Assembly: GCA_001632435.1 (NCBI GenBank)
Contig: KV423947.1
Coordinates: 125,855-189,854, forward strand
Source: Calocera cornea HHB12733
Lineage: Eukaryota > Basidiomycota > Dacrymycetes > Dacrymycetales > Dacrymycetaceae
Length of the DNA stretch: 64,000 nt
Reading direction: 5' to 3'
The notes below the pieces were generated by a model, which was given only the letters and a program-made list of their open reading frames with translations, was not told the DNA's origin and searched no databases. Numbering within the stretch: position 1 is the first letter of the stretch; every line of letters starts with the position of its first letter. Of the stretch, positions 1 to 58,087 are shown in pieces. The translations under genes were made by a program, and so were the position numbers.

Positions 1-3000
1 CTGTCCGACATTTTGAACAAGCTCTCTCCCATGCTTCCAGGAATGAGAGCTCGAGCACTGGTCGGCATAGGGGCAGCAGTTTTCGACCCGAATGCGGACC
101 ACTTATCCAAGGGACAAGCCACAGTTCAGTTCCGCGATGGCACGATCAATACATTGATAATGACAAGTGTTGGATATGATACGGAGCTGCCTCGCTACAG
201 CATTGGCATTCTATTCGATGCATTCGATGGCCTATCTGCGATCACCCTGGTACGCACGGTCGGCATACTATTATCCATCTTGCTAACGCTTGCAAAGCAA
301 GAATCTAATGCTCGCAAGGGCGCAAAAGTACTCCTCATCCTTACCGAGAAAGGAAATCAGAGGGATATGCGCGCCCTTGCAACCCATTCAAGGAAGCGTA
401 GAAGAGAAAGTATATCAAGCGTGTCCAGCGAGAGTCCCTTCTCCCGGAATCGATCTCGCACAACCGACAGCGCAGATGAGGAGGAGGACGAGCGACCGTA
501 CATTGTTGTCCCTGGATCAAGTACTGCAATGAGCGCTCGCGTATACCCTGAAGAAGCGCCTCAGCTGCTCATGCGATACATTTCGATCAAAGAGAAAGCT
601 CCGCTTACGCTCAACGCCGAATATCGTGCCGTCGATGAGAACAATCGATATTTCGAATGCACCATCCACTTCCTCCCGAGTGCTGGGATGGAGGATGTCA
701 AGAGCGAGGCCTGTCCCTCGAAGGCAGCTTCTCGCCGCCGCGCTGCGTACTTGGCTTGCGAAGAACTTAATAGACGCGGACTGTTGGGAGACTTGGTAGC
801 GCAGGCCAAGAGAAAACTGAAAAGCCTCACAAGGGCAGAGAGACCTTCGATCTTCGATGGAGAAGTCGGTGTTGCTCTTGAGAAGAAGATGGCCAAGGAA
901 CGAAACAAAAGAGAGCGAGGATCCAAGCTATACCCTCGCAAGAAGCTTGATTTTTGGCAGGACAGCCTTCTGCATCCCGACAGCCCGTTATATCCTCTTA
1001 TCATTCATCTGGACACTGGGGACATGGTTCTGCCCGATACCTACCGCACGCTATGCGTTCTTACTAGGGTACCCCTACCACCCATCCGGCCGTTTGAGCT
1101 CTTCTTTCCCGAGCTGAACAAGTCGCCAGATCAGGCAATTGCGGCTCCCGTCATGGTGAAGCTTCTACCATGCAAGTCGTTCCACGTACCGCCAGAGCGA
1201 GCATCGGATGTGCATCGTTACACCATTCGTCTGGTTCGCAGTGCTACCAGCAAACAGTTTTTCTGCCTTTCCGACCAGATGGTTTACTACTTTCTGCCCA
1301 TGAAGGCAGGATGGACTCTTCCGACGGGCTCGGTCGGTGAAGCATTGACCCCTGCCATTGATGATGCAATCGATTGGGGAGATGTCGAAACTGCTGCATC
1401 TCAGAACGGCTGGCTGCCATTGGATCGACGGAATCTGGAGGATGAAATCAAGGACGCCATAATTCAGGATCGTGAAATGGAGTTCACCAGGAAATACCGA
1501 CCCATTCGAGTACGTCATGACTTGACCCCGTTGTCTAAGCCGGAAGACAGCCCAGTATGTGATGACGTTTGGCTTCAGACTAGTACTCATGGGACTGTAG
1601 CGGGAACAAGAATATGCCAGCATCCTCGACTATTGCAGAGCAAAGAGGCGGGGCTTCGAGGGTGTGCAGGATGAAAGCCAGCCACTGATCGAAGTCGATA
1701 AGGTCCCCGAACCTCTGACTCGGCTATCCCCACATTGCCGCTTCCATGTAAATACGAAACGGATACCTGCAAAGTGTAGGACTTCATGTTCTTCAATGAA
1801 TAGTTGCTAATGCTCTCTAGATCTGATACCGGAAATCTGTGTCAAGTACTGTCTATCTCTCAGGTGAGTACCTATACTAGCCCGAAAACTGTTTCTCACT
1901 ATCTCCAGCTCTTTTCGCACTGCTATGCTTCTTCCATGCATAATGGCAAGGCTCGAAGAGCGGCTCTTGGCACGAGAGTGTAACGATGCTCTCTTTGAGG
2001 GCCGACTAGACGAAGGTCAGTTGTGTCAAGCGCTTACGGCACCATCCGCTATGGTTGGTTACGACTATCAACGACTCGAACTACTTGGTATGTCTCTACT
2101 TGAATACCGCGGGCTTTACTCATACCTCCTGGAAGGCGATTCATTTCTCAAGTATCTGGCTTCAATCTACCTCTTTGTCACATGTCCCACGGACGGTGAA
2201 GGTGCTATGCACGTTCAGCGGCAGCGAATCATCAGCAACTTCTCCCTAAAGTTTCACTCCGACAGAATTGGCCTACTTCCGCAGTATATCCAAGTTCGGC
2301 AGCAAGGACCACGGCAATGGTGGCCTCCTAATTTCCGCATCTTCAACCCAATCATGTCACCCGTGTTGGATGCCAAAGAGAAATTCATCCAAGGACCGCC
2401 AGATCCTCTAGTTCTCTTGCCGAATCTAGGCAAACCGACAGCCAATGAGAACGGTGATTCATCACTGTTGCTTGCAACTGAGGAAAAAGACGGAGATGAG
2501 CGTGGAGACAATGTAGCTAAAGAGCTCACGGCATCGGGTCATGAAGCAACTGAGCCTCCGTCTGATCCAATGGCATACTCCGCTAGAGAGCGGCGCGCTC
2601 TTGAGGACGAACAGCAGCAGGACCTAGGCGACAAATGTGTAGCAGACGTGGCGGAAGCTGTGTTGGGCGCGGCTTGGTTGACGGGACAGCGCGACATGGC
2701 ACTTTCTGTTTGCCACATCTTAGGTCTTCCGATCTCCCGCATGACTTCGTGGGGGTATCTAAAGGACCGAGCGCCTGAGTTCTTTCGAGACGACGTTGAC
2801 ATTGGGCCTGTTTCAATGGCGAAGGTTCGAGCAGTCGAGGCCATCCTTGGCCACGAATTCAAGCACCCCTTCGTAGCAGCGATGGCGTTGGTGAGCTGCT
2901 CTCCGTGAAACTTTGAATGTTACTGATGTGTTGCGCAAGACCCATCCATCGCGGACAACTCCAGAGCTCCCAGGATACGAAAGGCTCGAGTTCATTGGCG

Positions 3001-3947
3001 ATGCCATTCTGGATTTCCGTATGTGCTGTTCCTTTTTCCAAGGTATATTTGTTGATACTCCTGCAGTTACTGTACGAATGATCTTTACAAGATGGGGCGA
3101 CCAACCCGAAGGTTGGTTGACCCTGCTAAAGGTGGGTAAACACGCACCCTGATATAACACCTGTAATTGACTCTTCCTACCCTCAGGGCGCGATGGTATC
3201 CAATGCAGCCCTTGCGGCCGCCGGGGTGGAGCTCGGGCTGCACAAGTACATTATGCATGACTCTTCACATCTAACCCCCATTATCTCCGCGTATGCTGAG
3301 GAGGTCACGAACCTCAAGGACGAGGATCTTGCGGCGGCCCAAATGGAAGGTCGAGCACCCGGAGAGTACTGGGTGGACCTGGAACCACCGAAGGTACGTG
3401 CGGCGAAGCACAATGGCTACAAGCCTCATTTTGAACATTTATGCCAGGTGCTTTCGGATATCGTTGAGGCAGTCGTAGGCGCGATCTATGTCTCCGACTC
3501 GTTTGATCATACAGGCTACGAAGACGTTTTCGACCGCCTATTCAAGCCGTTCTTCCTTCAGCATATCTCGCTCAGCACGCTCGCGCAGCATCCAACAAAA
3601 CAGTTATTCGAGATTGCTCAAAGGCGAGGCTGCCGCCAGTTTGAACTGGTTAAGTCAAGAGCGGACACAGAGCTCTTAACCGAGGTGCAGTGCGATTGTA
3701 TGCCACTCTTCCCTGCTATCGTACGACCATTGATGATTCCTTCGCAGTCATCTTCCATGGACACATTCTTGGGACAGCCATCGGAAGCACGTCGGCAATC
3801 GCTAGCCGAAGAGCATCCGCCATAGCACTGGAGAGAGTGAGAGCAGAGCCCGAGATATTGACTGTGCTCTGCCAATGCAAGCAGGTCGCTCCGGAGAAGG
3901 GGACCCCCACGACATATCAAGTCACAATACCAGATGAGGACTCATAG
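1..3947 (+). CDS. Dicer-like ribonuclease III, 5' end outside the window
   Basis: This is a double-stranded RNA endonuclease of the RNA-silencing pathway, cut off at its N terminus by the window edge. The order seen is the tail of the helicase C domain (to about 370), a dsRBD-like dimerisation domain (about 560-800), a platform/PAZ-like region (about 1000-1550), RNase IIIa (about 1970-2900), RNase IIIb (about 2940-3690) and a short dsRNA-binding tail. Both RNase III signatures become continuous only after splicing: LELLGDSFLKYLAS across the 48-nt intron near 2089-2136, and YERLEFIGDAILDFL across the intron near 3017. The second acidic pairs (DVAEAVLGA, SDIVEAVVGA) are also present, so both catalytic centres look intact. 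The helicase part is degenerate: after removing the intron at 250-297, motif VI reads QESNAR instead of the usual QxRGRAR. The stop is TAG at 3945-3947 after an intron at about 3698-3746. Confidence 0.93.
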
Positions 3948-4136
3948 TGAACGGCGAAGAGGAGCCATTCACGAAGATCTGAAGAGACGGGTATATCACG
4001 TATCACCATCACGCATATAACCACGCAGTTTTTGAAGAGATTAGATATCCGCATTGTTTGATACACCCGACAACGTTATGAACACTGCAATGACATCATT
4101 TGATGACCGCATCCCAGTTGGTGGTATTGCCTCTCT

Positions 4137-4528
4137 CTACGCCGCACCCGCACCCGCGGACTTACGCCTATGATAGCCTTGTCAGAATCCTTCGCGGTGC
4201 ATAAGAATGAGAGACGCACAGTTGATACCAGGCAGCAATGAACGGGAGAGCGAAGCTACGGAAGCACTGTTAGCAGAGACGCGTGAAAAAGACGGGATAA
4301 AGCGCCTACCCCGTGCCGAGATAAGCGATCAGCTTTATGGCAAAGGTCGTCTTGTTCCTGTAGTCGAACGGCATGTTCTGTAACTGTATCAGCCTCCTTG
4401 GGCCCTCTCACGCTGCCAATTTGACTTACGTTGTACACGGTGTTCTCGAAATGCACGCCACGAGCCTGAATGACAGGCCGGGCAAGAGCGCGCGAAGCGA
4501 CGGGGCGGATAGCAGCGCGGGCAAGCAT
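4137..4528 (-). CDS. COX8: Cytochrome c oxidase subunit VIIc-type (Cox8)
   Basis: This is a small nuclear-encoded subunit of mitochondrial complex IV. The spliced protein is about 74 residues: a basic presequence rich in Ala and Arg, the family core RGVHFENTVYN / NMPFDYRNKTTFAIK, one membrane segment (YLGTGFALPFIAAWYQL) and a short basic tail (RKSAGAGAA). Four exons are needed. The last two introns were placed because they restore the GFALPF membrane helix and the QL[RK]KS tail known from yeast Cox8. If the final intron is not removed, the protein would instead stop at 4168-4170. The gene is divergent from APC11, 190 bp away. Confidence 0.85.
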
Positions 4529-4720
4529 CGTGTACGCTGGTTGGTCGTTGTCGGGATGGAGGAGGGTGAGGGCGATGTAGGGAGAGGCCCGGAGCGGAGC
4601 CCGAATGGGAGCCCGAATGGGAGACGCCACTGAGGCTCGGGTCCGAAGTTGTTTATCCGGGCAGAGTCGCGTCGCTTCTTCACACGCGTCGACCACGGCC
4701 GCTGGCAGCACCTCAACAAG

Positions 4721-5145
4721 ATGAAGGTCACAGTAAAGCAATGGAACGCCGTTGCCTATTGGAAGTGGGATACGGGCTCGACAACTGAAGCGGATCCAAA
4801 CCCAGACGAGGATGCCGAGGACGACGTATGCGGCATATGTCGCGTGTCATTCGAAGGATGCTGCCCAACGTGCAAGATGCCTGGGGATGACTGTCCTTTG
4901 AGTGAGCTGACCTTTCAATTGAAAGGACTTTGTAGGCTGATGACGCGAATATAGTATGGGGCCAGTGTACCCACGTCTTTCATATGCATTGTCTTCTTAA
5001 ATGGCTGAACACGGCAAGTAGTAAGCAGCAATGTCCAATGGATAGGCGGACTTGGGGTGCGTCAGCATTTACAGTCTTCAAATCCACCAAACTGACCCTT
5101 GTCCCAGTTACTGCTGAACGAAAGGTCGACCGCGTGACTCTGTAA
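4721..5145 (+). CDS. APC11: Anaphase-promoting complex subunit 11 (RING-H2)
   Basis: This is the catalytic RING subunit of the APC/C ubiquitin ligase, which recruits E2 enzymes in mitosis. The start MKVTVKQWNAVAYWKW is the family N terminus. The zinc ligands lie in order in VCGICRVSFEGCCPTC, CTHVFHMHCLLKWL (across the intron ending near 4953) and QCPMDRRTW, which is the usual APC11 layout including the extra cysteines. A second intron of about 50 nt precedes the last 12 codons. The length of about 108 residues is slightly longer than average because of an acidic Asp/Glu linker after residue 20. Confidence 0.93.
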
Positions 5146-5444
5146 CCGGTGACCGAAAATTTGGGAACCCCATCTAGCATTGACAATGCACCGATTCACC
5201 CGCTCATGGGACGGGTCTCAATTCTCCGCACTGCGATCCGCATTCGAAGGTCGATGGCCCATGTCGGCTGTTTCGACTCTCTCTCCTGTATCTATCCCCC
5301 TGCGGTGACAGGAAGAACAAGAAGCTTGATGCATCTCTCGAACGTCATCTTTCTGCGCCCGCCGGTGCATATAAGAACACGGCTGTTTTGCCTTGAGCCT
5401 GACCTCGCCCCGCCCACAACCGAGGGCACTCGCCACCTTCCGCA
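5146..5444. promoter_or_regulatory. Promoter region of cysteine-rich peptide copy 1
   Basis: There is no supported gene here. A TATA-like element (CATATAAG, about 5368-5375) lies about 75 bp before the ATG. Similar elements lie at comparable distances before the other copies: AGATAAAG upstream of copy 2, TTATACTT upstream of copy 3, TTACTTAAG upstream of copy 4 and GGCATAAAG upstream of copy 5. Confidence 0.45.
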
Positions 5445-5636
5445 ATGCGTTTCTCAACCTTTCTCTTCGCCATCATTTTCGCATCTGGCGCGACCTCCGT
5501 TGTCGCTCATGTCTGCCCCGACATCAGTTGCGCACCGGCCATCGATTGGACAGAAGACAGCGGGTGCTGTGTACCCATCTGTGGTCCTATTGGCAGCACC
5601 GCTACTCCCGTGCCTCGCCCTAGCTGGTGCACTTGA
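5445..5636 (+). CDS. Small secreted six-cysteine peptide, copy 1
   Basis: A 63-residue single-exon protein of unknown function. Residues 1 to about 20 form a signal peptide (MRFSTFLFAIIFASG, then an Ala-rich cleavage region). The mature part of about 42 residues has six cysteines in the array framework C-P-x3-C-x3-[IV]-x-W-x5-C-C-x3-C-G-x2-G, then a Pro-rich stretch (TPVPRPSWC) holding the last cysteine. The CPDISC, DSGCC and ICG blocks are visible. Three disulfides and secretion are inferred from this pattern. I recognise no described family. The ATG follows a TATA-like box by about 75 bp. An intron follows the stop by 12 nt. Confidence 0.8.
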   Translation: MRFSTFLFAIIFASGATSVVAHVCPDISCAPAIDWTEDSGCCVPICGPIGSTATPVPRPSWCT

Positions 5637-5648
5637 AGGCAGCCAGAG

Positions 5649-5698
5649 GTAAGCAGCTCGTTGCGCACGTTTCGTGCCATGCTCACACCGCCTTTCAG
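5649..5698 (+). other. 3' UTR intron of peptide copy 1
   Basis: A GTAAGC donor and TTTCAG acceptor bracket 50 nt starting 12 nt after the stop codon. Introns in the equivalent place follow all other copies: 6089-6140 on the minus strand (12 nt after the stop), 7763-7815 (23 nt), 8377-8434 (24 nt) and 9252-9302 (20 nt). The decayed copy has a similar one at 7015-7070. Confidence 0.6.
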
Positions 5699-6152
5699 CA
5701 AGCTACGCTCCGAGCGGGATGAGGTTGGGAGACGTACGCCGATGTGATGAGATGTGTCGGATAATTGTTGGAATGGGGTGGAACATCAGTGAGGGCCGAG
5801 ATCTCCGGTCCAGTCATTCAAAGTCGCGGATCGCATTCAATGACATGAAACCATTCTCGTAGTTTCGTCCTGAGTTCCTCATCATAAGGATCTTGCACGT
5901 GTGCGATACTCTTGCGGGCGGCTCCATGGGATACCAACTAATGTCTATGCTCATCAGGAGGCTACCGTACATGATCTTTCGGCACATCATCAATATAGTA
6001 GACTCGCGACATGTCCTACACAACCCATGACATCACCGGCTCCTATCAAACTACAACCGTCCCGTCCATCCTCCTGCGTATGTTGGCTCTGAAACGCTCA
6101 GTCTACATCAGTTCCGCTGCCCATATGATGCAGGACATACAGTACTGCGCGA
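5699..6152. other. Intergenic interval between peptide copies 1 and 2
   Basis: This holds the inferred 3' UTRs of the two convergent copies, including the copy 2 UTR intron at 6089-6140 (minus strand, GTATGT donor, TTTCAG acceptor). I see no other gene in it. Confidence 0.5.
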
Positions 6153-6338
6153 TCAAGCGCAACCAACGGGGCGTGGCACAATCACGTCCCCCGAGTCGCC
6201 GCAAACAGGAAGGCAACAGCCATCGTCCAGATGCCAAGCGATGGGAAAGGCGCACATGTACATCGGGCAGGCGACGGGAACTGACGTTGCAGCTACCGTG
6301 GATGCGATGAAAACGATGGCAATCGGCAGGAAACGCAT
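6153..6338 (-). CDS. Small secreted six-cysteine peptide, copy 2 (inverted)
   Basis: A 61-residue single-exon protein on the strand opposite to the other copies. The signal peptide MRFLPIAIVFIASTVAA is followed by the framework: CPMYMC, then IAW, then DDGCC, then VCG, then VPRPVGC. Cysteine spacing to the third-from-last cysteine is identical to all other copies, and the final spacer is 13 residues as in copies 4 and 5. The intron after the stop begins exactly 12 nt downstream, as in copy 1. Function is unknown. An extracellular role (effector, signal or defence peptide) is an inference only. Confidence 0.8.
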   Translation of the reverse strand: MRFLPIAIVFIASTVAATSVPVACPMYMCAFPIAWHLDDGCCLPVCGDSGDVIVPRPVGCA

Positions 6339-6833
6339 GGCGGTGAGATTTGGGTTGCACGAGTGACAACTTGTTATGTGAATGACGGAGAGAATGCAAC
6401 CGTTCGGTTTGCATCTTTATCTGCGTCTTGACAACGGCAGCTGCCTAACAAGTCAGACGGCGCACAGGTTCAAACTCCTGACATCCGCTAAAACAGGTCG
6501 GCAATCGGTGAAGGTCCCATGATCATAATTTTTTGGGAAGCTGGGAGAACGGCAGGGAAACAGCGGGATGGGGTAAACTCGGCAAGTTGTCTTCCGGCGA
6601 GGGCGCTAATTTTTCGGTCACGGCATGTTTTCTATCAACGGAACCCCGCTCAGGTGACTCAGGCACGGAATTCTTGGATTTTCGAGAACCGAGACTTCTT
6701 GTACGTTTGACCACGGGTTTGGTACATTGCTATCACTTCCGATCAAGTAACTAGTTACCAATTCCTCTCTTCCACGAGAGTACAGAGGGCATCCACTGTG
6801 ACGACGAGCGGTTTATTGCTCACTCCAGTTGCC
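6339..6833. other. Intergenic interval with promoter of peptide copy 2
   Basis: A TATA-like AGATAAAG (minus strand, about 6416-6423) lies about 80 bp before the copy 2 start. I see no other supported gene. Short open frames at 6520-6750 have no recognisable features. Confidence 0.4.
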
Positions 6834-7070
6834 ATGTCCGCGGTGTTCGTCCCGGTTCTGGCAAGTCCTCTTCTGATTGCAAATATTTTGCACATGCCAC
6901 AGAGGCGGTTCCAGTTCAGCCTTCGTCTTCGTAGGTTGGACCCTCATGAACGGCTGTTGCATGCTTGTCTGGGAATGGGGATTCGAGCACCCAGACGGGC
7001 TATTGCCTTGTGGGGTGAGAATGTTACTCGTGCTTTTCTTCCTCGATGACATCCCACTGACATTCCCAAG
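6834..7070 (+). pseudogene. Decayed sixth copy of the six-cysteine peptide gene
   Basis: An ATG at 6834 opens a hydrophobic, signal-like stretch (MSAVFVPVLASPLLIAN). A different frame then carries VGWTLMNGCC at about 6930-6965, which keeps the [IV]-x-W-x5-C-C core of the family. The upstream family cysteine is Ala here, and the one three residues after CC is Trp. The frame change between signal-like and core parts means no intact family protein can be read. A GTGAGA...AAG intron-like segment at 7015-7070 sits where the other copies have their 3' UTR intron. It is called a pseudogene from this mosaic of retained and broken features. A chance match is possible but unlikely given its place in the array. 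Confidence 0.55.
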
Positions 7071-7523
7071 TCATGCGGATTGTATGAGACCCTTTCGATT
7101 TATATCCGTCTCCGATCAATCCATCTCTCCGCTACTCAGCTCTTCCGCGGAGTCGGTGGTGTCTGATTCCCTCACGGGTGAACCAGTCATACGTTCCTTA
7201 CTGCATCTTGCATTTGCTCGTTCCCGTCGGTACCTTGATGGACGGGAGACCGAACAACGGACTTTCCACAGCATTCCTACCCAGACTGGACTGAAACAAC
7301 GCCGCTAATTTTGGCGCGGGCGGTACATTGACTGTATTACCCGGCAAGCCATCAGGGATGCTTGACTGCGTGACTGGACATTACCTGGGCTCGTTTTCGA
7401 AATGCCGCGTATCTCTTGTGCACCTTTCGGTGCCAGCCAAGGTTATACTTAACCACTCAGTCTATGAGCACTGCACATCCAAACCCGTACCTTCACCAGC
7501 AAACGACCTTTCATCAGCCCAGC
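7071..7523. other. Intergenic interval before peptide copy 3
   Basis: There is no supported gene. A TATA-like TTATACTTAA (about 7442-7451) lies about 80 bp before the copy 3 start. Confidence 0.4.
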
Positions 7524-7739
7524 ATGCATCTCTCTGTCCTGAGCCTCCTAGCTGTCGCCTGCCTGACGGCTGCGAACCCTTTCCCTGGACCAATGCCCGC
7601 CACCGGACTGCACGTTTGCCCCGACTATGCATGCGTGGTGACTGTGGGTTGGGTGTACAGCGATGGATGCTGTGAACCCATCTGTGGAGCGATCGGCGCG
7701 ACGCCTTCTCCTCACCCGACTTCAGGTCCTTGTGCTTGA
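7524..7739 (+). CDS. Small secreted six-cysteine peptide, copy 3
   Basis: A 71-residue protein from the ATG giving MHLSVLSLLAVACLTAAN, a clear signal peptide. A short Pro-rich propeptide-like segment (PFPGPMPATG) precedes the framework CPDYAC, VGW, SDGCC, ICG and a 15-residue spacer ending GPCA. This is the most divergent intact copy: Val replaces Ile in the IxW block and the Pro-rich loop differs. An upstream in-frame extension exists, but the chosen ATG is the one directly preceding the hydrophobic signal. A 3' UTR intron begins 23 nt after the stop. Confidence 0.78.
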   Translation: MHLSVLSLLAVACLTAANPFPGPMPATGLHVCPDYACVVTVGWVYSDGCCEPICGAIGATPSPHPTSGPCA

Positions 7740-8166
7740 TCATGAGTCAGACATGAAGATCGGTGAGTGCAGAGCTCTTCCTCTCCCAAAGATGCTTAAT
7801 AGGTTCTCTGATCAGGATGGCACCCACAACGGGCCTTGCTTAGTCCTGTTTTCTTCGGACAAGTTATTCATGAGTTTGATGTACAGTTGGACATCGAACG
7901 AAAAGAGTTGTCTCTCATCTCTTCCCGCATGTGATTCCAATGCCATGTGCAACTAGCCTGTAAACCACTTGTTCATCTTTGTGCGCATTTGCTTTCCCAT
8001 GTCGGCACATCCAGATGACCTGTGCTATCCCCGAAAGGCTCGTCCTCACCGCCTCCACTATGTACTGCTATTCCGCATTGTGCCCTTATTGGAAACTTAC
8101 TTAAGACGGGCGACACTCGCCTGTTCAGTCCTCATCCTGCAACCAACTCAGTCTGCCCACTACACC
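7740..8166. other. Intergenic interval between peptide copies 3 and 4
   Basis: It contains the copy 3 UTR intron (7763-7815) and a TATA-like TTACTTAAG (about 8097-8105) before copy 4. Nothing else is supported. Confidence 0.4.
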
Positions 8167-8352
8167 ATGCGCAGCTTTTACATCGCACTTGCCCTTGTCA
8201 TGTATACCGCAGCAGCAGCGCTCCCGGAGCCGGAGGCTTGCCCGCTCTACATCTGTGACATCCCCATCGCCTGGCACAAGCAGGGCAATTGCTGCCTGGC
8301 CACTTGCGGCGGCCTAGGTGATACGCCGGTGCCGCGTCCTTCGTGGTGCTGA
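8167..8352 (+). CDS. Small secreted six-cysteine peptide, copy 4
   Basis: A 61-residue single-exon protein. The signal peptide MRSFYIALALVMYTAAAA is followed by LPEPEA and the framework CPLYIC, IAW, GNCC, TCG and TPVPRPSWC at the extreme C terminus. It is closest to copy 5: both share IPIAWH, CCLATCGG and GDTPVP. That similarity suggests a recent duplication of this pair. The 3' UTR intron at 8377-8434 (branch CTGAC) starts 24 nt after the stop. Function is unknown. Confidence 0.8.
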   Translation: MRSFYIALALVMYTAAAALPEPEACPLYICDIPIAWHKQGNCCLATCGGLGDTPVPRPSWC

Positions 8353-9021
8353 ACATCCCTGTGGAGCAATCATCAGGTAGTACTTCCTACACGGAGAGCA
8401 ATCTTGCAACCTGCTGACTTCCCTTCTCGTTCAGCTTCAGAGTTATGGGGAAGAGGAATGAACGCGTATATGCACAAGCTATTGACTGTTTCGTGTACTG
8501 CGAATGTATGCCGAAGTCATATCCATGCCATGGGAAGAGAACCCAGACTCTCAGGGCAGCAACCGGGTCACCTGAGCGCGCCCATCTGATATAAGTTTGA
8601 TCGATTCAGAGGAAGAGGAAATTGTTCCTCTTCGTTCACGAAGCCTGCATCGCATTCTGCACATTCTCGGGCTGTTCATCACCATCGTCATTTCCGTGCA
8701 AGCGCGTGACCTTGATCATCGGACCTTGATCATCGGCTGTCCGAATACGGCACTCTGTAGCTCCGTTTAATCATGCTCATCGCCGAGGTAGAGAATGTGC
8801 TCACTCAACGTGCGAGCGAAGATGGTCTCCAATTGGTGCAGTGTACGAGTGGCTTGTCGGTCGGCACCGACGTACTCACCAGGTGCTATGGATGATCGCC
8901 AAGGCCCCCGTCCGCAGGGTACTCGCACGGGGCATAAAGACGAGAGGTCTCTCTCGTTTCCCCCAAACTTCAGCACTCCCACCCCCGGACGAGCACCTCA
9001 CGTTCAGCACTATTAGCAGCC
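8353..9021. other. Intergenic interval between peptide copies 4 and 5
   Basis: It contains the copy 4 UTR intron and a TATA-like GGCATAAAG at about 8931-8939, roughly 85 bp before copy 5. I see no other gene. Confidence 0.4.
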
Positions 9022-9231
9022 ATGCGTTTCATCGTTCTCGCCCTTATCCTCTGCACCTCCGTCGTGGTCGCAAACCCGCTTCCCGCCCCCGAGCCTGTCC
9101 CGGCCGTCTGCCCGGATTACCTTTGCGCCATCCCCATCGCTTGGCATGAAGACGACGGCTGCTGCCTTGCGACCTGCGGTGGTGATGGCGACACTCCTGT
9201 GCCGAAGCCCTGGTGGTGCAAGAACTACTGA
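9022..9231 (+). CDS. Small secreted six-cysteine peptide, copy 5
   Basis: A 69-residue single-exon protein. The signal peptide MRFIVLALILCTSVVVA is followed by a Pro-rich spacer (NPLPAPEPVPAV) and the framework CPDYLC, IAW, DDGCC, TCG and TPVPKPWWC, ending KNY. It is the longest mature form with the clearest presequence. The Pro-rich spacer could be a dipeptidyl-type propeptide, which is inference. The 3' UTR intron at 9252-9302 begins 20 nt after the stop. Confidence 0.82.
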   Translation: MRFIVLALILCTSVVVANPLPAPEPVPAVCPDYLCAIPIAWHEDDGCCLATCGGDGDTPVPKPWWCKNY

Positions 9232-10260
9232 ACGCCCGCACGGTTGTAAACGTACGCACTTCTATCTTCTATCGAAACCCGGAGTAACGACTTTTTATAC
9301 AGGACACGAGGCTGCCAGAGGAATGGGCAGTAGTGTGAAGCAGCATCATGTTACGTCTATGAATGTATTGCAATGCTGCCAAGCACCGAGAAGAAATGTC
9401 ATGGATTGAAGTCGCGGGACAACGTCAGCAGTTGCAGAGTGACGACACCCTGTCCGATCTCCCCCCCGCGTCTCTTTAACTCTTTCAGTTTCTACCGCGT
9501 CAAGATGTCATTCCTTCTCCTATCGCGGATCTCTGAACCCATGCCGCGACTGACGATCCAGGGACACGCTGTCCTGTGATCTAGATTAGTCCAGTACGCG
9601 ACATTTGTACAATCCAGTACTCACCGGTTGATCGACGTTTGCTCAACGCCTCCCTGCCTCCTGCGCCGCTGACTGGTTCTCACATCCAAGCTGTGCAACA
9701 GCACCGAGAGGAGCGACCGCCTTCAGCAAGCTATGTAGAATTGACCGGACGTTGGTCTCGTTGTTGTCTTCCTGGTTGATCGTCGCGTTCGCGCTCCCAG
9801 GTGGGCCGAAGGTTTCATGAGCGATGATGAGAATCTGTTCGCCGATTTGTTTTAGGTATTGGCGAGGCTGCAACATGGTGAAGAGACAACCGTGGTGGCA
9901 GAGACAGCTGAGGGCGGTCGGTATGGGGCCAGCAAAGAGGTGAGAACTACTCGGCTCATCAGGGCAATACGTATTGCGCTTCCCTCGGTTCATCTCGGCA
10001 TCGAGCATATGCTCGATCACCTTCCTGTATTAATAACGGTAAATGACAGATGTGTTGGGTCAATTTACGGTGGATCTGCACCCTCATTGAGGGACAGGCA
10101 CTTTCCGGGACCGACGACGACGTCGGAACCCCAACGGCGGATAATGAATGCAGGGCTGGGACCCGCATTTCTTTGCGAACGGCACACACACACGACCAGT
10201 TCATTCATATCAGATATCATTTGTATTGCAGCGAAACACGCCCACGAAAGTAACCCCATT
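9232..10260. other. Interval with one unresolved minus-strand open frame
   Basis: A minus-strand frame at 9643-10020 reads without stops (MLQPRQYLKQIGEQILII and onward). It could be joined by a GTAAAT...ATACAG intron (about 10022-10066) to an upstream exon ending NEGADPP. The protein matches nothing I recognise and no convincing start is seen. It may be a lineage-specific gene or a chance frame. The rest of the interval shows no supported feature. Confidence 0.3.
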
Positions 10261-12072
10261 TCATATCGCATGTCCCTCCCTTGGCGTCAGTATGACCTGG
10301 AGATCGCCCTTGGGCCGAATCATCCCAAACCCTCTCTGACCTTCCCCGAACCGGACGTCCGGCCCATGCCGATCGTCTAGCTTGATATCGAATGTTGTTA
10401 GGAGCAGGACGACAAATGTGCGGATCTGGGAGAGCGCGAGGAAGCGGCCTTCGCATTGGGAGATACCGCCCTGTATGCGCTGTTAGCCAACCGGCGGTGT
10501 AAGGGCGGGAGCACGACGCACCCCAAACGGCAGATATGACGGCTGCTTGTGCTGCCTGTCCATGAACCGTGTCGGCATGAACTTGCCCGCGTCTTCAAAG
10601 ATGTCCTCGCTCAGATGCAACGAGCGGACAGAGCACACAATATGGTCGCCTTTCCTGAGCTCGTACCCGCCTAGGCGCACCGACTCCGCCTCGACACACC
10701 GGACGGAGAACGAGCCCGTCGCGTACCTGAGTGTCTCCTGCACGGCTGAGGTCAGCCTGGGGAGCTGCGCCTCCCCCACGAACTGCACGACGCTGTCCGC
10801 AAACGGCGCAGCGGGGTGCGCCTTCTCCCACTCCGCCCGCGCGGCATCGACCTCCTGCACGAGCGGCTCCAGGCCCCCAGGCGCGCGGAGCATGAGCGCC
10901 AGCAGCCAGTATACGGCGAAGGGCGAGTTGGCCTGGAGCGGCCAGAGCAGCGCCAGGAGCCACACTGCCGTGTCCCGCCCTGACCAAGCGTGCGCCCGCG
11001 CAACATGCACGACCGAATCGATCAGCTCGCTCGCCCCCGCGAAGGCGGGGGCAGAGAGGTACTGCTCGAATATGCGCAGAAGGTGGGCTCGCGCGCGCGT
11101 GAAGGGGACGTCGAGGGAGGAGGGGAGGCCCATGGCTAGGGCGGGAACGGAGCTGTCGAACGTGCTGAAGGAGGGCTGTAGTTTGGAGGCGGGGAAGGAG
11201 GGCCCGAAGAGCGCGTGCGTGGCTGCGTCAAACACCCCGCCGTGGATGAAGGGCAGGAGGAGGACGGTCCTGTGCCCTGCCCCGGCCTTGAGTTCCTCGG
11301 CCAGAGAGCGCATCCGAGCAGCGGCAGAGGCGGCGAATGCCTCACCCAGACCATGCACATGCGCCGGGGACAACGCTCTGCCGTTCATCAGCGCTCAGCT
11401 TCTCACGGCCCATACCCGAGAACTGGACGCACTTGTGAATGAGCGGGAACATCTCCTGCCCCACGGCGCCCACGTTCGCGGCAGCTCCAGCGGAGAGGCC
11501 AAAGATGTTCTGCATCCACTGGAACTGCAGCGGGGAGAGGGCGTACGCGCTCGGGGTTTTGTAGATCGTTGAGATGAGCTGCGTTGAGACGAGACAGTTG
11601 AGCATGTGTGGATGGAGGGAGGGAGGCGGAGGGAGCCAGGGGAGAGGGACGGACCGGCGCTGAGGTGACGTAGTACATCCTCCGACCCAGGCTGGTGACG
11701 CCGAAGCACTCGCCGTACTGTTTCCTACAGCCCTCAAGGCAGCATCAGTGCTGCGACTCCAACCACTCCCCGCGCAACCGCGCCCACGCCAACCAAACCC
11801 AGCAGCAGCAGAAAGCCGACCCACCTCGCACTCTCGACAAACCCGTCAAAGTCCCTCCTCATGGCCCGGTAAGAGCCCAGCCACGGCACGATACTGCTGA
11901 CCAGGGGCGGGCGGCCAGGCTCGGTGCGGAGGTGGGTGAAGAGGGGGAGGGGGCCGCATAGGAGGAGGAGGAGGGACAGGGGGAGGAGCAGCGCTGCCGC
12001 TGTGGGCCAGTAGGCTGCGAGGAGGTTGGCAGGCTGGGGCGGCAGGCTGGGGAGGAGGGAGGTAGTGCTCAT
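10261..12072 (-). CDS. Cytochrome P450, CYP7/CYP8-like
   Basis: This is a haem monooxygenase anchored in the ER. An N-terminal membrane segment (about residues 15-40, LLLPLSLLLLL) and a Pro-rich hinge (PGRPPLVSSIVPWLG) open the protein. The K-helix ExxR is ETLR, followed by the FMPTRF block. The haem-binding loop PFGGGISQCEGRF is formed by joining two exons across the intron near 10470-10520. The I-helix region reads PLQANSPFAVYWLL and lacks the usual acid-Thr pair, as in CYP7/CYP8 enzymes, which use sterol or lipid substrates. The substrate here is unknown. About five exons are needed, with the stop at 10261-10263. No terpene or polyketide genes are adjacent. Confidence 0.85.
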
Positions 12073-35972: not shown

Positions 35973-38900
35973 CTAGCGGTAATTGTACGTCGGGGCGACG
36001 GGAGGAAGTGGTCGTCCGCCATTACCAGGGGGACCGGGGGGCCAGTACTGCGAGGGTGGCTGAGGCGGCAAGCTGGGCGGTTGCGGAGGAGGTCCGGGGA
36101 AGTAGGACTGCGGTGAGGGTCCTTGATGGCCGGGGAATTGTGGGGGTGACATATTGGGCGGAGAGTTGAAGGGACGCGGGCCACCAAGTGGCGGCGTATT
36201 CGCGTATGTCGGCGCGGGAGGTGGTGGCCCAATCGGTTGGCCCCGGCCGAAGCTCATGGACGGCGGTAGCTGTGTATGGGTGGGGGACGGCGGCTGATAT
36301 GGAGGCTGAGGAGGAGGTGCCGGAGGAGGCCCTGGAGGGGCTGCATGCTGAGGCGCAGGCGGCGGTGGGAGTGGTGGCCGAGCCGGTGGAGGCCCAGTCG
36401 GAGGGGGTGCGTAGGACTGTCCCGGCGGGGGACCATGGGGAGGTGTGCCATTTGGATATCCTGACTGGGATTGCATCGGAGGTGGTGCACTAGGAGGCGG
36501 CCCACCGTACATGGGTCTGGGAGGGGTCGGGTAACCCTGCTGAGGAGCCGGAGGTTGGGGCGGGAAGATCTGCTGCTGTTGGGGCGGGGGTTGTTTGTAT
36601 GGGAAGCCTTGGGGAGGCGAATTGGTAGGCGGGAAGTGCTGTGACGACTGGCTACTGGAGAAGTTTTGCTGAGGTTGATTGTTGGGCGGGAAGCTTGATT
36701 GAGATTGATTGTTGGGCGAGAAGCTTTGCTGCGGTTGGTTGTTGGGCATGAAGCTATGCTGAGGAGGAGGATTGCTCGGCGGGAAGTGTTGCTGTTGCGG
36801 TGGTGGTCCATGCTGAGGAGGCGGGTATGGTGGGTAACTTGGAGCGGCTGTCTGCGGCCGGGGTGCTTGGTTCGGCGCAACGAGCGGCTGCCAAGGGGGC
36901 TGAGCCTGGTTCGGAGACGCAAGCGGCGGCGGGGGAAAGGGTGGCGGGGCGGATTGCTGCTGATACGGAGGACCAGGTGGCGGTGGCCCAGGAGGGAAGG
37001 ATGGACGTAGCGGTCCGGGAGGATAGGAGGTCTGGGGCGGCGACTGAGAAGGATACTGCGGCTGCGGCTGCGACTGCTGCGGCTGTTGCGAGGGAGGGGG
37101 CCCCTGATGCTGCTGCGGCACAGGCATGTATTGCTGTTGTTGCGGCGGTGGTCCGTATTGAAGTGCGGAAGGTTGGCCAGAACCCGAAGGCGAGCTATTG
37201 GTATGCATGCCCATTGGCGGCCGCATCTGCGGTGGATACTGGATCGGCATCTGCGGACCGATTTGCGTTGGAAGAGAGTTCGTACGCTGCGGCGATGGGA
37301 TCGGAGATACAGGCGAATGTGTCTGAATCTGCGGCCCGGCATTCAGATGCGCCGGAGTGGTCGGAGGATATGCGGTGCCTGGAGGGGTAGGCAGGGGTAC
37401 AGATTGGCTGGGTGGAGGGTATTGCCCAGGCGGAGGAGGGTAACCACCTTGCATCTGCTGCGGGTTCGGCGGCAGAGGACGACCCGCAGACGAAGCACGA
37501 GGCGGTGAGGGAATAGGTGCCGGAAGGTGAGGCGGAGATTGACCATACGGCTGCTGTGGGCCGGCCTGGGGCTGAGGGGTCGGCAGCGGCGGCCTTAGGC
37601 CATGATTTTGTGCTTGCGGTGGAGCCGCAGCGGGTTGAGTTGGGGGAGTGTACTGTGCAGGAGGGAGCTGCTGCTGATAGACGTAGGGCTGTGGGGATGG
37701 AGGTGGTCTAGGCGGAGCATTGGCATTGGGGAATGGTGGAGCGCTCTGAGGGAATGGCATCGACGGAGACTGCCCAAAGTTGCTCGACGCGGACAACGGT
37801 GTAGGCGTTGACCCACGAGAAATGCCGGAGCCGGGAGGAGGCTGTAGAGATCCGAACCCACTGGTCGGCCTTTGGATATTCCAGCCGTCGTTGGGTGCTG
37901 CCAGGCCGGATTGGAGCACCTGAGAAGCCTGCCCGGCACTGAACGACTGGCTGTGCGGTCGGGGGAGGGGCGAGTGCCCCCGCAGTGGTAAAGCACTGCT
38001 CGGTGCCGACGTCGCCAGAGAGAGGCTCGAGAGCGAGTCTGACAGGCTGCTAGCCGAGTCGTAGCTGGAGAGGGTTGACAGAGCAGGTCGCGGAATATGG
38101 TGCGACGAGAGACTTTGCGACCCAGGCAGATCGAACATGGACATTGGACGTTGTCCAGCCCTAGCAGGCATTGTGTCCGGCCGCCGGTGATCGACAAGCG
38201 AGCCACCAAACTCGTCGTACTCTTCCATCCCGGGATCCCGAGCTGGGACAGGCGGACGAGCACCCCCTCTTGGGAGAGACTCGTAAGGCGCCGTGTACAG
38301 CTCCAGGGAAGCCATCGAGCCGGACTGTCGTAGGCTCGGAACGGTCGTTGCGTCCGAAGCGACTCGCGGTCGCCCAGATATTCCGTTCACGGATCCCGCA
38401 GAGATGGACTGCCGACCACCTGCAAGTAGCGCCGCTGGAACGTCGACAGGGGCTACACCGACTCCACCAAGGGAGTCTACTACGGGTACCACCGGTTTCT
38501 TCTTCTTGGGTGGGGGTTTCTCCTGCAGCGGCGATTCAGTATCATTGAGAAATTTAAATCCAGAAGTAAGCGCACGTTAAGCCAATAGGTCATCTCCAAA
38601 TACACCTCACCCTGGTACCGGTCTTTGCTGTAGATCGTATACCACTCTGCACATCGCATCAGTCACCTAGTGCACGGTCGTCGAAAGAGCAGACGCACCA
38701 TCGTGCTCTCCCGCCTTCAGGACAGCATCCAATTCCACCGTTCCCTCGCCGATGAACTCCGGCTCTCTCGGGTCATCAGCGTAGACTTGTACACGGAGCG
38801 ACTTGCCCCCCTTGATTTTGAGGACTTTCTCCTTCTTCGGCGTCGCGTCTTTGGGCGGTGGGGCGGGCACTTCCTCCTCCTCCTTGCTCTTGGTTTTCGC

Positions 38901-56718: not shown

Positions 56719-57573
56719 CTAATCCCCCTCCACCATCCAATAAGCGGGCGCGTCGAGCTTCTCATGGCCCTTCAAGAACGGCAGGCCGACGACAAACAGG
56801 TACTCGAGCACCTTGCTCCCCTGCAGGCCGACGAGCTCGCCCGCCGCCTTTGCGCTCCCGCCCGTCGCGATCAGGTCGTCGATCACTATTACGGACTGGC
56901 CGGGGGCGATCGAGTGCGCTTGCATTTCGAACATGTCCTGCGAGACACGACACCTGGGTGAGTACCGGGCCGCGGCAGGGACGGGGTAGGGTAGGGTGGG
57001 GACAAGGAACGGCAGGGAGTGAAAATGGAAGATGGAAGATGGAAAGTGGAAGCGGGAAGGCACGCACCGTCCCGTACTCCTTCTCATACTCGACCTTGAC
57101 ACACTCCCCCGGGAGCTTCCCCTTCTTCCTTACGGGCACGAACGCGGCATGGAGCCTTAGCGCGAGCGGCGGGCCGAGCAGGAAGCCCCTTGCGTCCAAG
57201 CCGACGACGACGTCGATGGAGGAGAGGCGGTTGCGCGGGAGGGTGACGGTCGTTATGTGGTGCACTAGGTGCGTGAAGAGCGTTTCGAGCGCGAAGGGCG
57301 AGCGGAAGATCGGGAAGATGTCTAGGAAGACGATGCCCTGCGCCAGCAGAGCACACGGACGGCCATTCGATCAGCCCCCGTGCTGCGTCGGACCCCCACA
57401 ACACTACGCTGCTAGTGGTGAAGAGGCCAGGAGGGGGGACGCACCGGCTGGGGGAAATCGGGATACTCGCCGAGCAGGGAGCGCAGGTAGGTCACATCCG
57501 CCTTTGCGCGATTGGACTCGGCGGCGGAGGCGGCCTCCTCAAAGTTGGCCGCGGGGACGAGGTGGGTCGACAT
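56719..57573 (-). CDS. APT1: Adenine phosphoribosyltransferase
   Basis: It converts adenine and PRPP to AMP (purine salvage, cytosol). The N terminus MSTHLVPAANFEEAASAAES has a non-homologous lead, then TYLRSLLGEYPDFPQP. After an intron: GIVFLDIFPIFRSPFALETL, DVVVGLDARGFLLGPPLALR and FVPVRKKGKLPGECVKVEYE. After a second intron: DMFEMQAHSIAPGQ and the PRPP loop VIVIDDLIATGGSAKAA, then GELVGLQGSKVLEYLFVVGL. The three exons account for a normal-length enzyme. Confidence 0.95.
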
Positions 57574-58087
57574 CCCCGGTAGAGCAGGTGACCGGCAGAC
57601 AGTGAGTCGAGAGGAGTCACGAGTTGTTGAAGCCGGTGATGGAGAGCTCCACGCCGTGCGTCCGTGAGCGCCAGCCAGGGCAGATGAAAGGCACAGCACG
57701 AGCACCGATAAGGGCCCTTGCCTGTCCCCATCAGGCTTCCTGTGGCGCTGCACCACCTTGCTTGTTTGCCCTGAGGGCCCAACGGGGCCAGTGGCGGATC
57801 CGCCTCCGGTGACGCACATGCTTCGTGGCTTCCCTTCTGGCTGGGACCCGCGGTGGACCCGAGCCGCCCGGTGTGATAGGCGGGCAGCATGGAGCGCTGT
57901 TTGGACTGGGCGGGGAGGTGACTCCCGCCGTGTCACCTCTCCATCTTCCACCATCTTCACTCCCACACCAGCAGGTGTCATACACGCTGTGCAGCCGTCG
58001 CTCGTAAATAATATAGACGCAGGCGCGCACACCTCTGATACACCTCTCCACCTGACATCGTGAGCACCTCCCCGCACGCATACAGCG
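57574..58087. other. Divergent promoter region
   Basis: It lies between two divergent genes. I see no coding feature. A TAAATAATATAGA segment (about 58007-58019) may be a TATA region for the plus-strand gene. Confidence 0.4.

What the first reader, a model, noticed from the sequence alone, without database searches (positions are those of the whole stretch)
5445..9231. Array of small secreted six-cysteine peptides with a private W-CC framework
Five intact 61-71-residue proteins share a signal peptide and the exact spacing C-P-x3-C-x3-[IV]-x-W-x5-C-C-x3-C-G-x2-G, then a Pro-rich 13-15-residue spacer to a terminal-region Cys. Outside the framework they differ strongly. Conserved cysteines with variable loops in a tandem array is the pattern of effector, defence or signalling peptide families. 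I know no named family with this spacing.
Basis: partly seen in the sequence, partly recalled or inferred. Interest (0 to 1): 0.88.

Follow-up and report, generated by a model that had tools for sequence, protein, structure and literature searches.

The report
Five-gene family of six-cysteine miniproteins
One spot in a likely fungal genome holds five small, related genes for predicted secreted proteins that share an exact six-cysteine pattern; no relative turned up in the protein and structure collections searched, and the proteins likely act outside the cell as tough binding peptides, though their target is unknown.

Summary
Five intact 61-71-residue ORFs (four on +, one on -) match C-P-x3-C-x3-[IV]-x-W-x5-C-C-x3-C-G-x2-G, with 13 or 15 residues from Cys5 to Cys6; 100 simulated windows hold none. 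Genome searches with four of the five proteins found only these five places in 32.1 Mb. No homologue appeared in 5.77 billion proteins, Pfam, NCBIfam or PDB, but their coverage of fungi is unknown. The spacing just misses the published knottin range. The peptides are mostly acidic. pN is below pS in 10 of 10 pairs, and the Cys1-Cys6 core changes less than the signal peptide in 9 of 10, the reverse of a diversifying toxin or effector array. All five have a possible 3'-UTR intron and a TATA-like element. AlphaFold2 gives a beta-hairpin with the Trp and the CC pair (best pLDDT 81). Best reading: a family of secreted, likely disulfide-stapled binding miniproteins, effector-like in the broad sense, functionally untested.

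The parts
5445..5636 (+). g1: predicted secreted six-Cys protein, 63 aa
   Evidence: ORF and framework
6153..6338 (-). g2: predicted secreted six-Cys protein, 61 aa, inverted copy
   Evidence: ORF and framework; 83-nt inverted match to g5 at 75%
7524..7739 (+). g3: predicted secreted six-Cys protein, 71 aa, with an X-Pro arm before Cys1
   Evidence: ORF and framework
8167..8352 (+). g4: predicted secreted six-Cys protein, 61 aa
   Evidence: ORF and framework; listed as P0001 in the protein collection; AF2 model
9022..9231 (+). g5: predicted secreted six-Cys protein, 69 aa, with a five-fold X-Pro arm before Cys1
   Evidence: ORF and framework; listed as P0002; AF2 model
5649..5698 (+). possible 3'-UTR intron of g1 (GTAAGC...TTTCAG, 50 nt)
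   Evidence: sequence signal only, no RNA evidence
6089..6140 (-). possible 3'-UTR intron of g2 (GTATGT...TTTCAG, 52 nt), one of several candidates
   Evidence: sequence signal only
7763..7815 (+). possible 3'-UTR intron of g3 (GTGAGT...GATCAG, 53 nt), one of several candidates
   Evidence: sequence signal only
8377..8434 (+). possible 3'-UTR intron of g4 (GTAGTA...GTTCAG, 58 nt; weak donor), one of several candidates
   Evidence: fails the strict donor consensus
9252..9302 (+). possible 3'-UTR intron of g5 (GTACGC...ATACAG, 51 nt), one of several candidates (donor 9246 is an alternative)
   Evidence: sequence signal only
5370..5377 (+). TATA-like element of g1 (75 nt before ATG)
6413..6420 (-). 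TATA-like element of g2 (82 nt before ATG)
7443..7450 (+). TATA-like element of g3 (81 nt before ATG)
8100..8107 (+). TATA-like element of g4 (CTTAAG type, weak; 67 nt before ATG)
8934..8941 (+). TATA-like element of g5 (88 nt before ATG)

Best explanation
The locus is a set of five paralogous genes, the only copies that whole-genome searches found, for small proteins that share a six-cysteine framework and are predicted to be secreted and likely to act outside the cell as disulfide-stapled binding peptides. Shown: the five ORFs, their framework, their single locus as far as the searches reach, their relatedness and the excess of silent over amino-acid change. Predicted: a signal peptide is removed in each. 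Inferred: three disulfides form in the secretory path. Inferred: in g3, g4 and g5 an alternating X-Pro arm before Cys1 may be trimmed by a dipeptidyl aminopeptidase, leaving little more than the Cys1-Cys6 core. Predicted by AlphaFold2: the core is a two-stranded beta-hairpin, one strand with the invariant Trp and the other with CC-x3-C. Inferred: the CP-x3-C loop and the Pro-rich tail ending in Cys6 are clamped to it. Inferred and untested: the conserved Trp and Pro-rich face binds one extracellular partner common to the family, and separate promoters let the copies be used at different times or places, which makes them effector-like small secreted proteins in the broad sense that includes saprotrophs.
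For: Framework in 5 of 5 and 0 in 100 simulated windows. Four genome searches, one each with g5, g2, g3 and g1, found the same five places. N-terminal hydrophobic stretch (best 12-residue Kyte-Doolittle mean 2.1-3.0) and at least one (-3,-1) cleavage site in 5 of 5; no strongly hydrophobic second stretch and no GPI-like hydrophobic tail. pN below pS in 10 of 10 pairs for the whole ORF and the core. AF2: same hairpin columns for g5 (pLDDT 75.4, pTM 0.47) and g4 (pLDDT 81.1, pTM 0.52; five models 72.8-81.1). TATA-like element 67-88 nt upstream in 5 of 5 (no chance control run). Possible 3'-UTR intron: strict rule 4 of 5 against 28 of 628 other ORF stops, loose rule 5 of 5 against 148 of 628.
Against: No expression, proteomic or functional evidence exists here. 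AF2 used five sequences; pTM is only 0.47-0.52, and four of the five g5 models scored 45.6-55.7. Disulfide pairing was not read from the models. The intron rule was framed after looking at the five genes. dS saturation weakens pN/pS, and the ten pairs are not independent. No more upstream 7-, 8- or 9-mers are shared by three or more genes than in random 400-mers, so common regulation is not shown. No partner is known.
Confidence: 0.45

Rival explanations
1. They are host-interaction effectors in the narrow sense: peptides released into the space around a living plant or other host to block its defences, kept as an array that diversifies under an arms race.
For: Small, predicted secreted, six Cys, single array, no known homologue. 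Rust knottin-like effectors of similar size exist (PMC6889267, passages read).
Against: The mature core is more conserved than the signal peptide in 9 of 10 pairs and pN is below pS in 10 of 10. The host and lifestyle are unknown. Small secreted Cys-rich proteins are about as common in saprophytes as in plant pathogens (PMC7105643, passages read).
Confidence: 0.2
2. They are antimicrobial or antifungal peptides used against competitors.
For: Size, Cys density and a predicted disulfide-rich fold fit; paralogues with separate promoters are common in such sets (general knowledge, no call).
Against: Net charge counting K/R and D/E is -2 to -5 from residue 18 on, and -4 to 0 for the core alone (g4 core 0), whereas most membrane-acting peptides are cationic (recalled). 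No Pfam match.
Confidence: 0.15
3. They are self-directed signals or regulators of fungal development or secondary metabolism, like the effector-like Ssp1 of Pleurotus, or wall and surface proteins.
For: Purifying selection on the core and likely separate promoters fit a housekeeping or developmental role; the X-Pro arm recalls trimmed secreted precursors (recalled).
Against: No dibasic (Kex2-like) site in any of the five; the only STE3-type receptor locus found lies on another contig, C41; no hydrophobin match.
Confidence: 0.18
4. The ORFs are relics that are no longer expressed.
For: No RNA data were available; g1, g2 and g3 did not appear in the protein search results, only g4 and g5 did.
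Against: Five intact frames with silent change in excess in 10 of 10 pairs at saturated dS; intron-like and TATA-like signals in all five. No convincing degenerate copy in the window.
Confidence: 0.02

Closest known systems
Knottin-like rust effector MLP124266 / AvrP4 family (Melampsora)
   Same: Fungal, secreted, mature protein of 69 aa with six conserved C-terminal Cys (eight in all) in a multigene family of 13 (PMC6889267, passages read)
   Different: There the spacing fits C-X2-7-C-X3-10-C-X0-7-C-X1-17-C-X4-19-C and signal peptides are highly conserved; here the second loop is 11, one over the limit, and the signal peptide is the less conserved part. No knottin appears in the PDB sequence search at E up to 10.
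WAP four-disulfide core (recalled motif)
   Same: A start with CP, and CC-x3-CG close to the end (resemblance recalled, no call)
   Different: WAP has eight Cys (recalled); here six, and neither Pfam nor the PDB sequence search reports it at E up to 10 (HMMER's filters drop most very weak matches)
Fungal hydrophobins (PF01185)
   Same: Small secreted Cys-rich fungal proteins; three matching places exist in this genome
   Different: Eight Cys with two CC pairs (recalled) against six with one CC; no Pfam match
Orphan fungal small secreted proteins, such as effector-like Ssp1 of Pleurotus ostreatus
   Same: Short, signal peptide, no known domain (PMC7105643, passages read)
   Different: Ssp1's sequence was not compared here; a partial table seen lists Ssp1 homologues in several Agaricales and other fungi, while none was found for this family

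Membership tests
Fungal small secreted protein (SSP) | Shorter than 300 aa with a signal peptide (definition in PMC7105643) | tested here: met
   61-71 aa; hydrophobic N-terminus and (-3,-1) site in 5 of 5; rule-based, SignalP not run
Fungal small secreted protein (SSP) | Actually secreted | not testable with these tools
   Needs secretome mass spectrometry
Knottin / inhibitor cystine knot | Spacing C-X2-7-C-X3-10-C-X0-7-C-X1-17-C-X4-19-C (PMC6889267) | tested here: not met
   4-11-0-3-13/15 in 5 of 5; the second loop is one residue too long
Knottin / inhibitor cystine knot | Disulfides I-IV, II-V, III-VI | not testable with these tools
   Model coordinates are not exposed; no knottin among the Foldseek hits (4 for g5, 0 for g4)
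Hydrophobin | PF01185 profile match | tested here: not met
   0 of 5 members
WAP domain | Eight-Cys core (recalled) / Pfam match | tested here: not met
   Six Cys; no such Pfam match in 5 members
Diversifying effector or toxin array | Mature region evolves faster than the signal peptide, amino-acid change in excess | tested here: not met
   pN below pS in 10 of 10 pairs; signal peptide has the higher pN in 9 of 10, equal in 1; dS saturated
Diversifying effector or toxin array | Expression during contact with a host or competitor | not testable with these tools
   No RNA data
Cationic antimicrobial peptide | Net positive charge (recalled) | tested here: not met
   -2 to -5 from residue 18 on in 5 of 5; core alone -4 to 0, g4 core 0

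The most novel reading that the evidence does not exclude
A previously undescribed, lineage-restricted miniprotein family with its own disulfide fold: a Trp/CC beta-hairpin locked by an N-terminal CP-x3-C loop and a Pro-rich C-terminal strand, outside the knottin spacing, kept by purifying selection as a five-gene toolkit of extracellular ligands in one fungal lineage.
Probability: 0.35. Interest if true: 0.6.

Novelty: new member of a known kind. Interest (0 to 1): 0.38.

Why it matters
Most fungal small secreted proteins are coded by orphan genes of unknown use (PMC7105643, passages read). This family is unusually tractable: all five copies found sit in 3.8 kb, so the whole set could be removed in one step and its effect read directly. 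The strict framework and conserved core suggest a stable scaffold with a defined binding face, and the sign that the core is more constrained than the signal peptide argues that not every such array is an arms-race product.
Full report
What was checked. The five ORFs are present as stated: g1 5445-5636 (+), g2 6153-6338 (-), g3 7524-7739 (+), g4 8167-8352 (+), g5 9022-9231 (+). All 5 of 5 match C-P-x3-C-x3-[IV]-x-W-x5-C-C-x3-C-G-x2-G; the window has 5 strict and 5 loose matches, 100 first-order Markov windows have 0 and 0. Cys gaps are 4, 11, 0, 3 and 13 or 15. The array is mixed in orientation: g2 is inverted and its longest inverted DNA match is to g5 (83 nt, 75%). By shared residues g2, g4 and g5 look like one group (PIAWH) and g1 with g3 another; no tree was built.

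Copy number. Whole-genome six-frame searches with g5, g2, g3 and g1 (4 of the 5 members) each returned the same five places on contig C34 and no other (the first at E up to 0.001, the last three at E up to 10; 7, 5, 5 and 5 candidates, all scored). The genome has 32,095,676 bases in 302 contigs. The first look is loose-worded and distant copies could be missed. Within the window no degenerate sixth copy is convincing: the next profile hit has E = 0.044, and the best tblastn hit beyond the five has E = 0.005 over 18 residues without the CC pair (57548-57601, -).

Are they genes? The N-termini have a hydrophobic stretch (best 12-residue mean 2.1-3.0) and a cleavage site by the (-3,-1) rule in 5 of 5; the mature part has no strongly hydrophobic second stretch (best 15-residue mean 0.79-1.47) and no GPI-like hydrophobic tail. 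A TATA-like element lies 67-88 nt before each ATG (that of g4 is a weak CTTAAG type, and no chance control was run for this). Just after each stop codon there is a possible intron (chosen candidates: donor 12-24 nt after the stop, 50-58 nt long; g2, g3, g4 and g5 have further candidates). By a strict donor rule 4 of 5 pass (g4 fails), by a loose rule 5 of 5, against 28 and 148 of 628 other ORF stops in the window and 0.046 and 0.219 of all window positions. The rule was framed after looking at the five genes, so the contrast is suggestive and not a test.

Selection. Nei-Gojobori counts on the codon alignment give pN below pS in 10 of 10 pairs for the whole ORF and for the Cys1-Cys6 core; for the first 18 residues in 9 of 10 (g2-g3: pN 0.54, pS 0.53). 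pN in the signal peptide exceeds pN in the core in 9 of 10 pairs and is equal at two decimals in g1-g2. The closest pair, g4-g5, has core pN 0.19, pS 0.74. The ten pairs come from five sequences and are not independent. dS is saturated or above 1 in all whole-ORF pairs, so the duplications are old or fast-evolving, and rare positively selected sites cannot be seen. The pattern is the reverse of a conserved signal peptide joined to a hypervariable mature part.

What the protein looks like. From residue 18 on the proteins are acidic, -2 to -5; the Cys1-to-end core alone is -4 to 0, g4 being 0. None has a dibasic site. g5, g3 and g4 have alternating X-Pro stretches before Cys1 (NPLPAPEPVP, NPFPGPMP, LPEP); g1 has no Pro there and g2 one. 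This suggests, by recalled analogy, stepwise dipeptide trimming in those three; it is untested. AlphaFold2 with the five-member alignment gives the same two-stranded hairpin for g5 (strands 21-27 and 30-35; pLDDT 75.4, pTM 0.47; the other four models 45.6-55.7) and g4 (16-22 and 25-30; pLDDT 81.1, pTM 0.52; five models 72.8-81.1). The strands are PIAWHED and CCLATC in g5, the matching columns in g4. No fold match is credible. Disulfide pairing was not read from the models.

Relatives. Three protein searches together hold all five members: A1 (five full-length; 340 candidates, E up to 0.1), A3 (mature g5, g4, g2; 3 candidates, E up to 10), A4 (mature g3, g1; no candidate); only g4 and g5 themselves came back. 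Pfam, NCBIfam and PDB sequences give no relative. Bacterial/archaeal and viral contigs give none. The protein collection holds g4 and g5 from this contig, so some fungal DNA is in it, but how many fungal proteomes it holds is unknown to me. Absence there does not show absence from fungi.

Neighbours. Left: two RNase III domain exons (1868-2905, 3130-3822; Dicer-like by inference) and an APC11 RING-H2 exon (4676-4954). Right: a cytochrome P450 exon (10486-11394, -). Further right: eS1, an autophagy (PF03987) domain, a glutamine synthetase domain and a mitochondrial carrier, among 20 chosen ORFs scanned, of which 10 had a Pfam family. The array sits between ordinary genes; nothing ties it to a mating locus: the one STE3 locus found is on contig C41. 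Organism and lifestyle remain unknown; fungal identity is inferred from hydrophobin and STE3 matches.

Comparison with known kinds. It is an SSP by definition (length, predicted signal peptide); SSPs make up 40-60% of fungal secretomes, and small secreted Cys-rich proteins are about equally common in saprophytes and plant pathogens (PMC7105643, passages). It is near the knottin spacing but one residue outside it, and the knottin-like rust effector MLP124266 has highly conserved signal peptides in its family (PMC6889267, passages). WAP and hydrophobin tests are not met. So: a new family, as far as the searched libraries go, inside a known kind.

Verdict. The arms-race reading is not supported by the substitution pattern; a conserved extracellular binding role is the better guess, at 0.45, with the target unknown.

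Noticed in passing
window 35976-38576 (-): An 867-residue open frame, very rich in Pro, Gln and Ser, in the region of strong GC skew at 36-38 kb (0.376); no Pfam match (translation). Possibly a low-complexity region of a larger protein (a guess).
   Followed up: partly
window 8708-8736: A perfect 14-nt tandem duplication (GACCTTGATCATCG) between g4 and g5.
   Followed up: no
window 6339-7523: The widest gap in the array (about 1.2 kb between g2 and g3); its ORFs (such as 6877-7308) were not scanned for domains. A short VFVGWTLMNGCC stretch at 6925-6960 resembles the W-x5-CC part (tblastn E 0.084) and may be chance or a worn relic.
   Followed up: partly
window 1868-4954: Two RNase III domain exons (Dicer-like by inference) and an APC11 RING-H2 exon directly left of the array.
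   Followed up: partly
own genome G000: Only one PF00141 peroxidase place (two matched pieces) and one CBM1 match found, and no AA9 match (no control rang for AA9): a thin lignocellulose set for a hydrophobin-bearing fungus, if the searches did not miss exons.
   Followed up: partly
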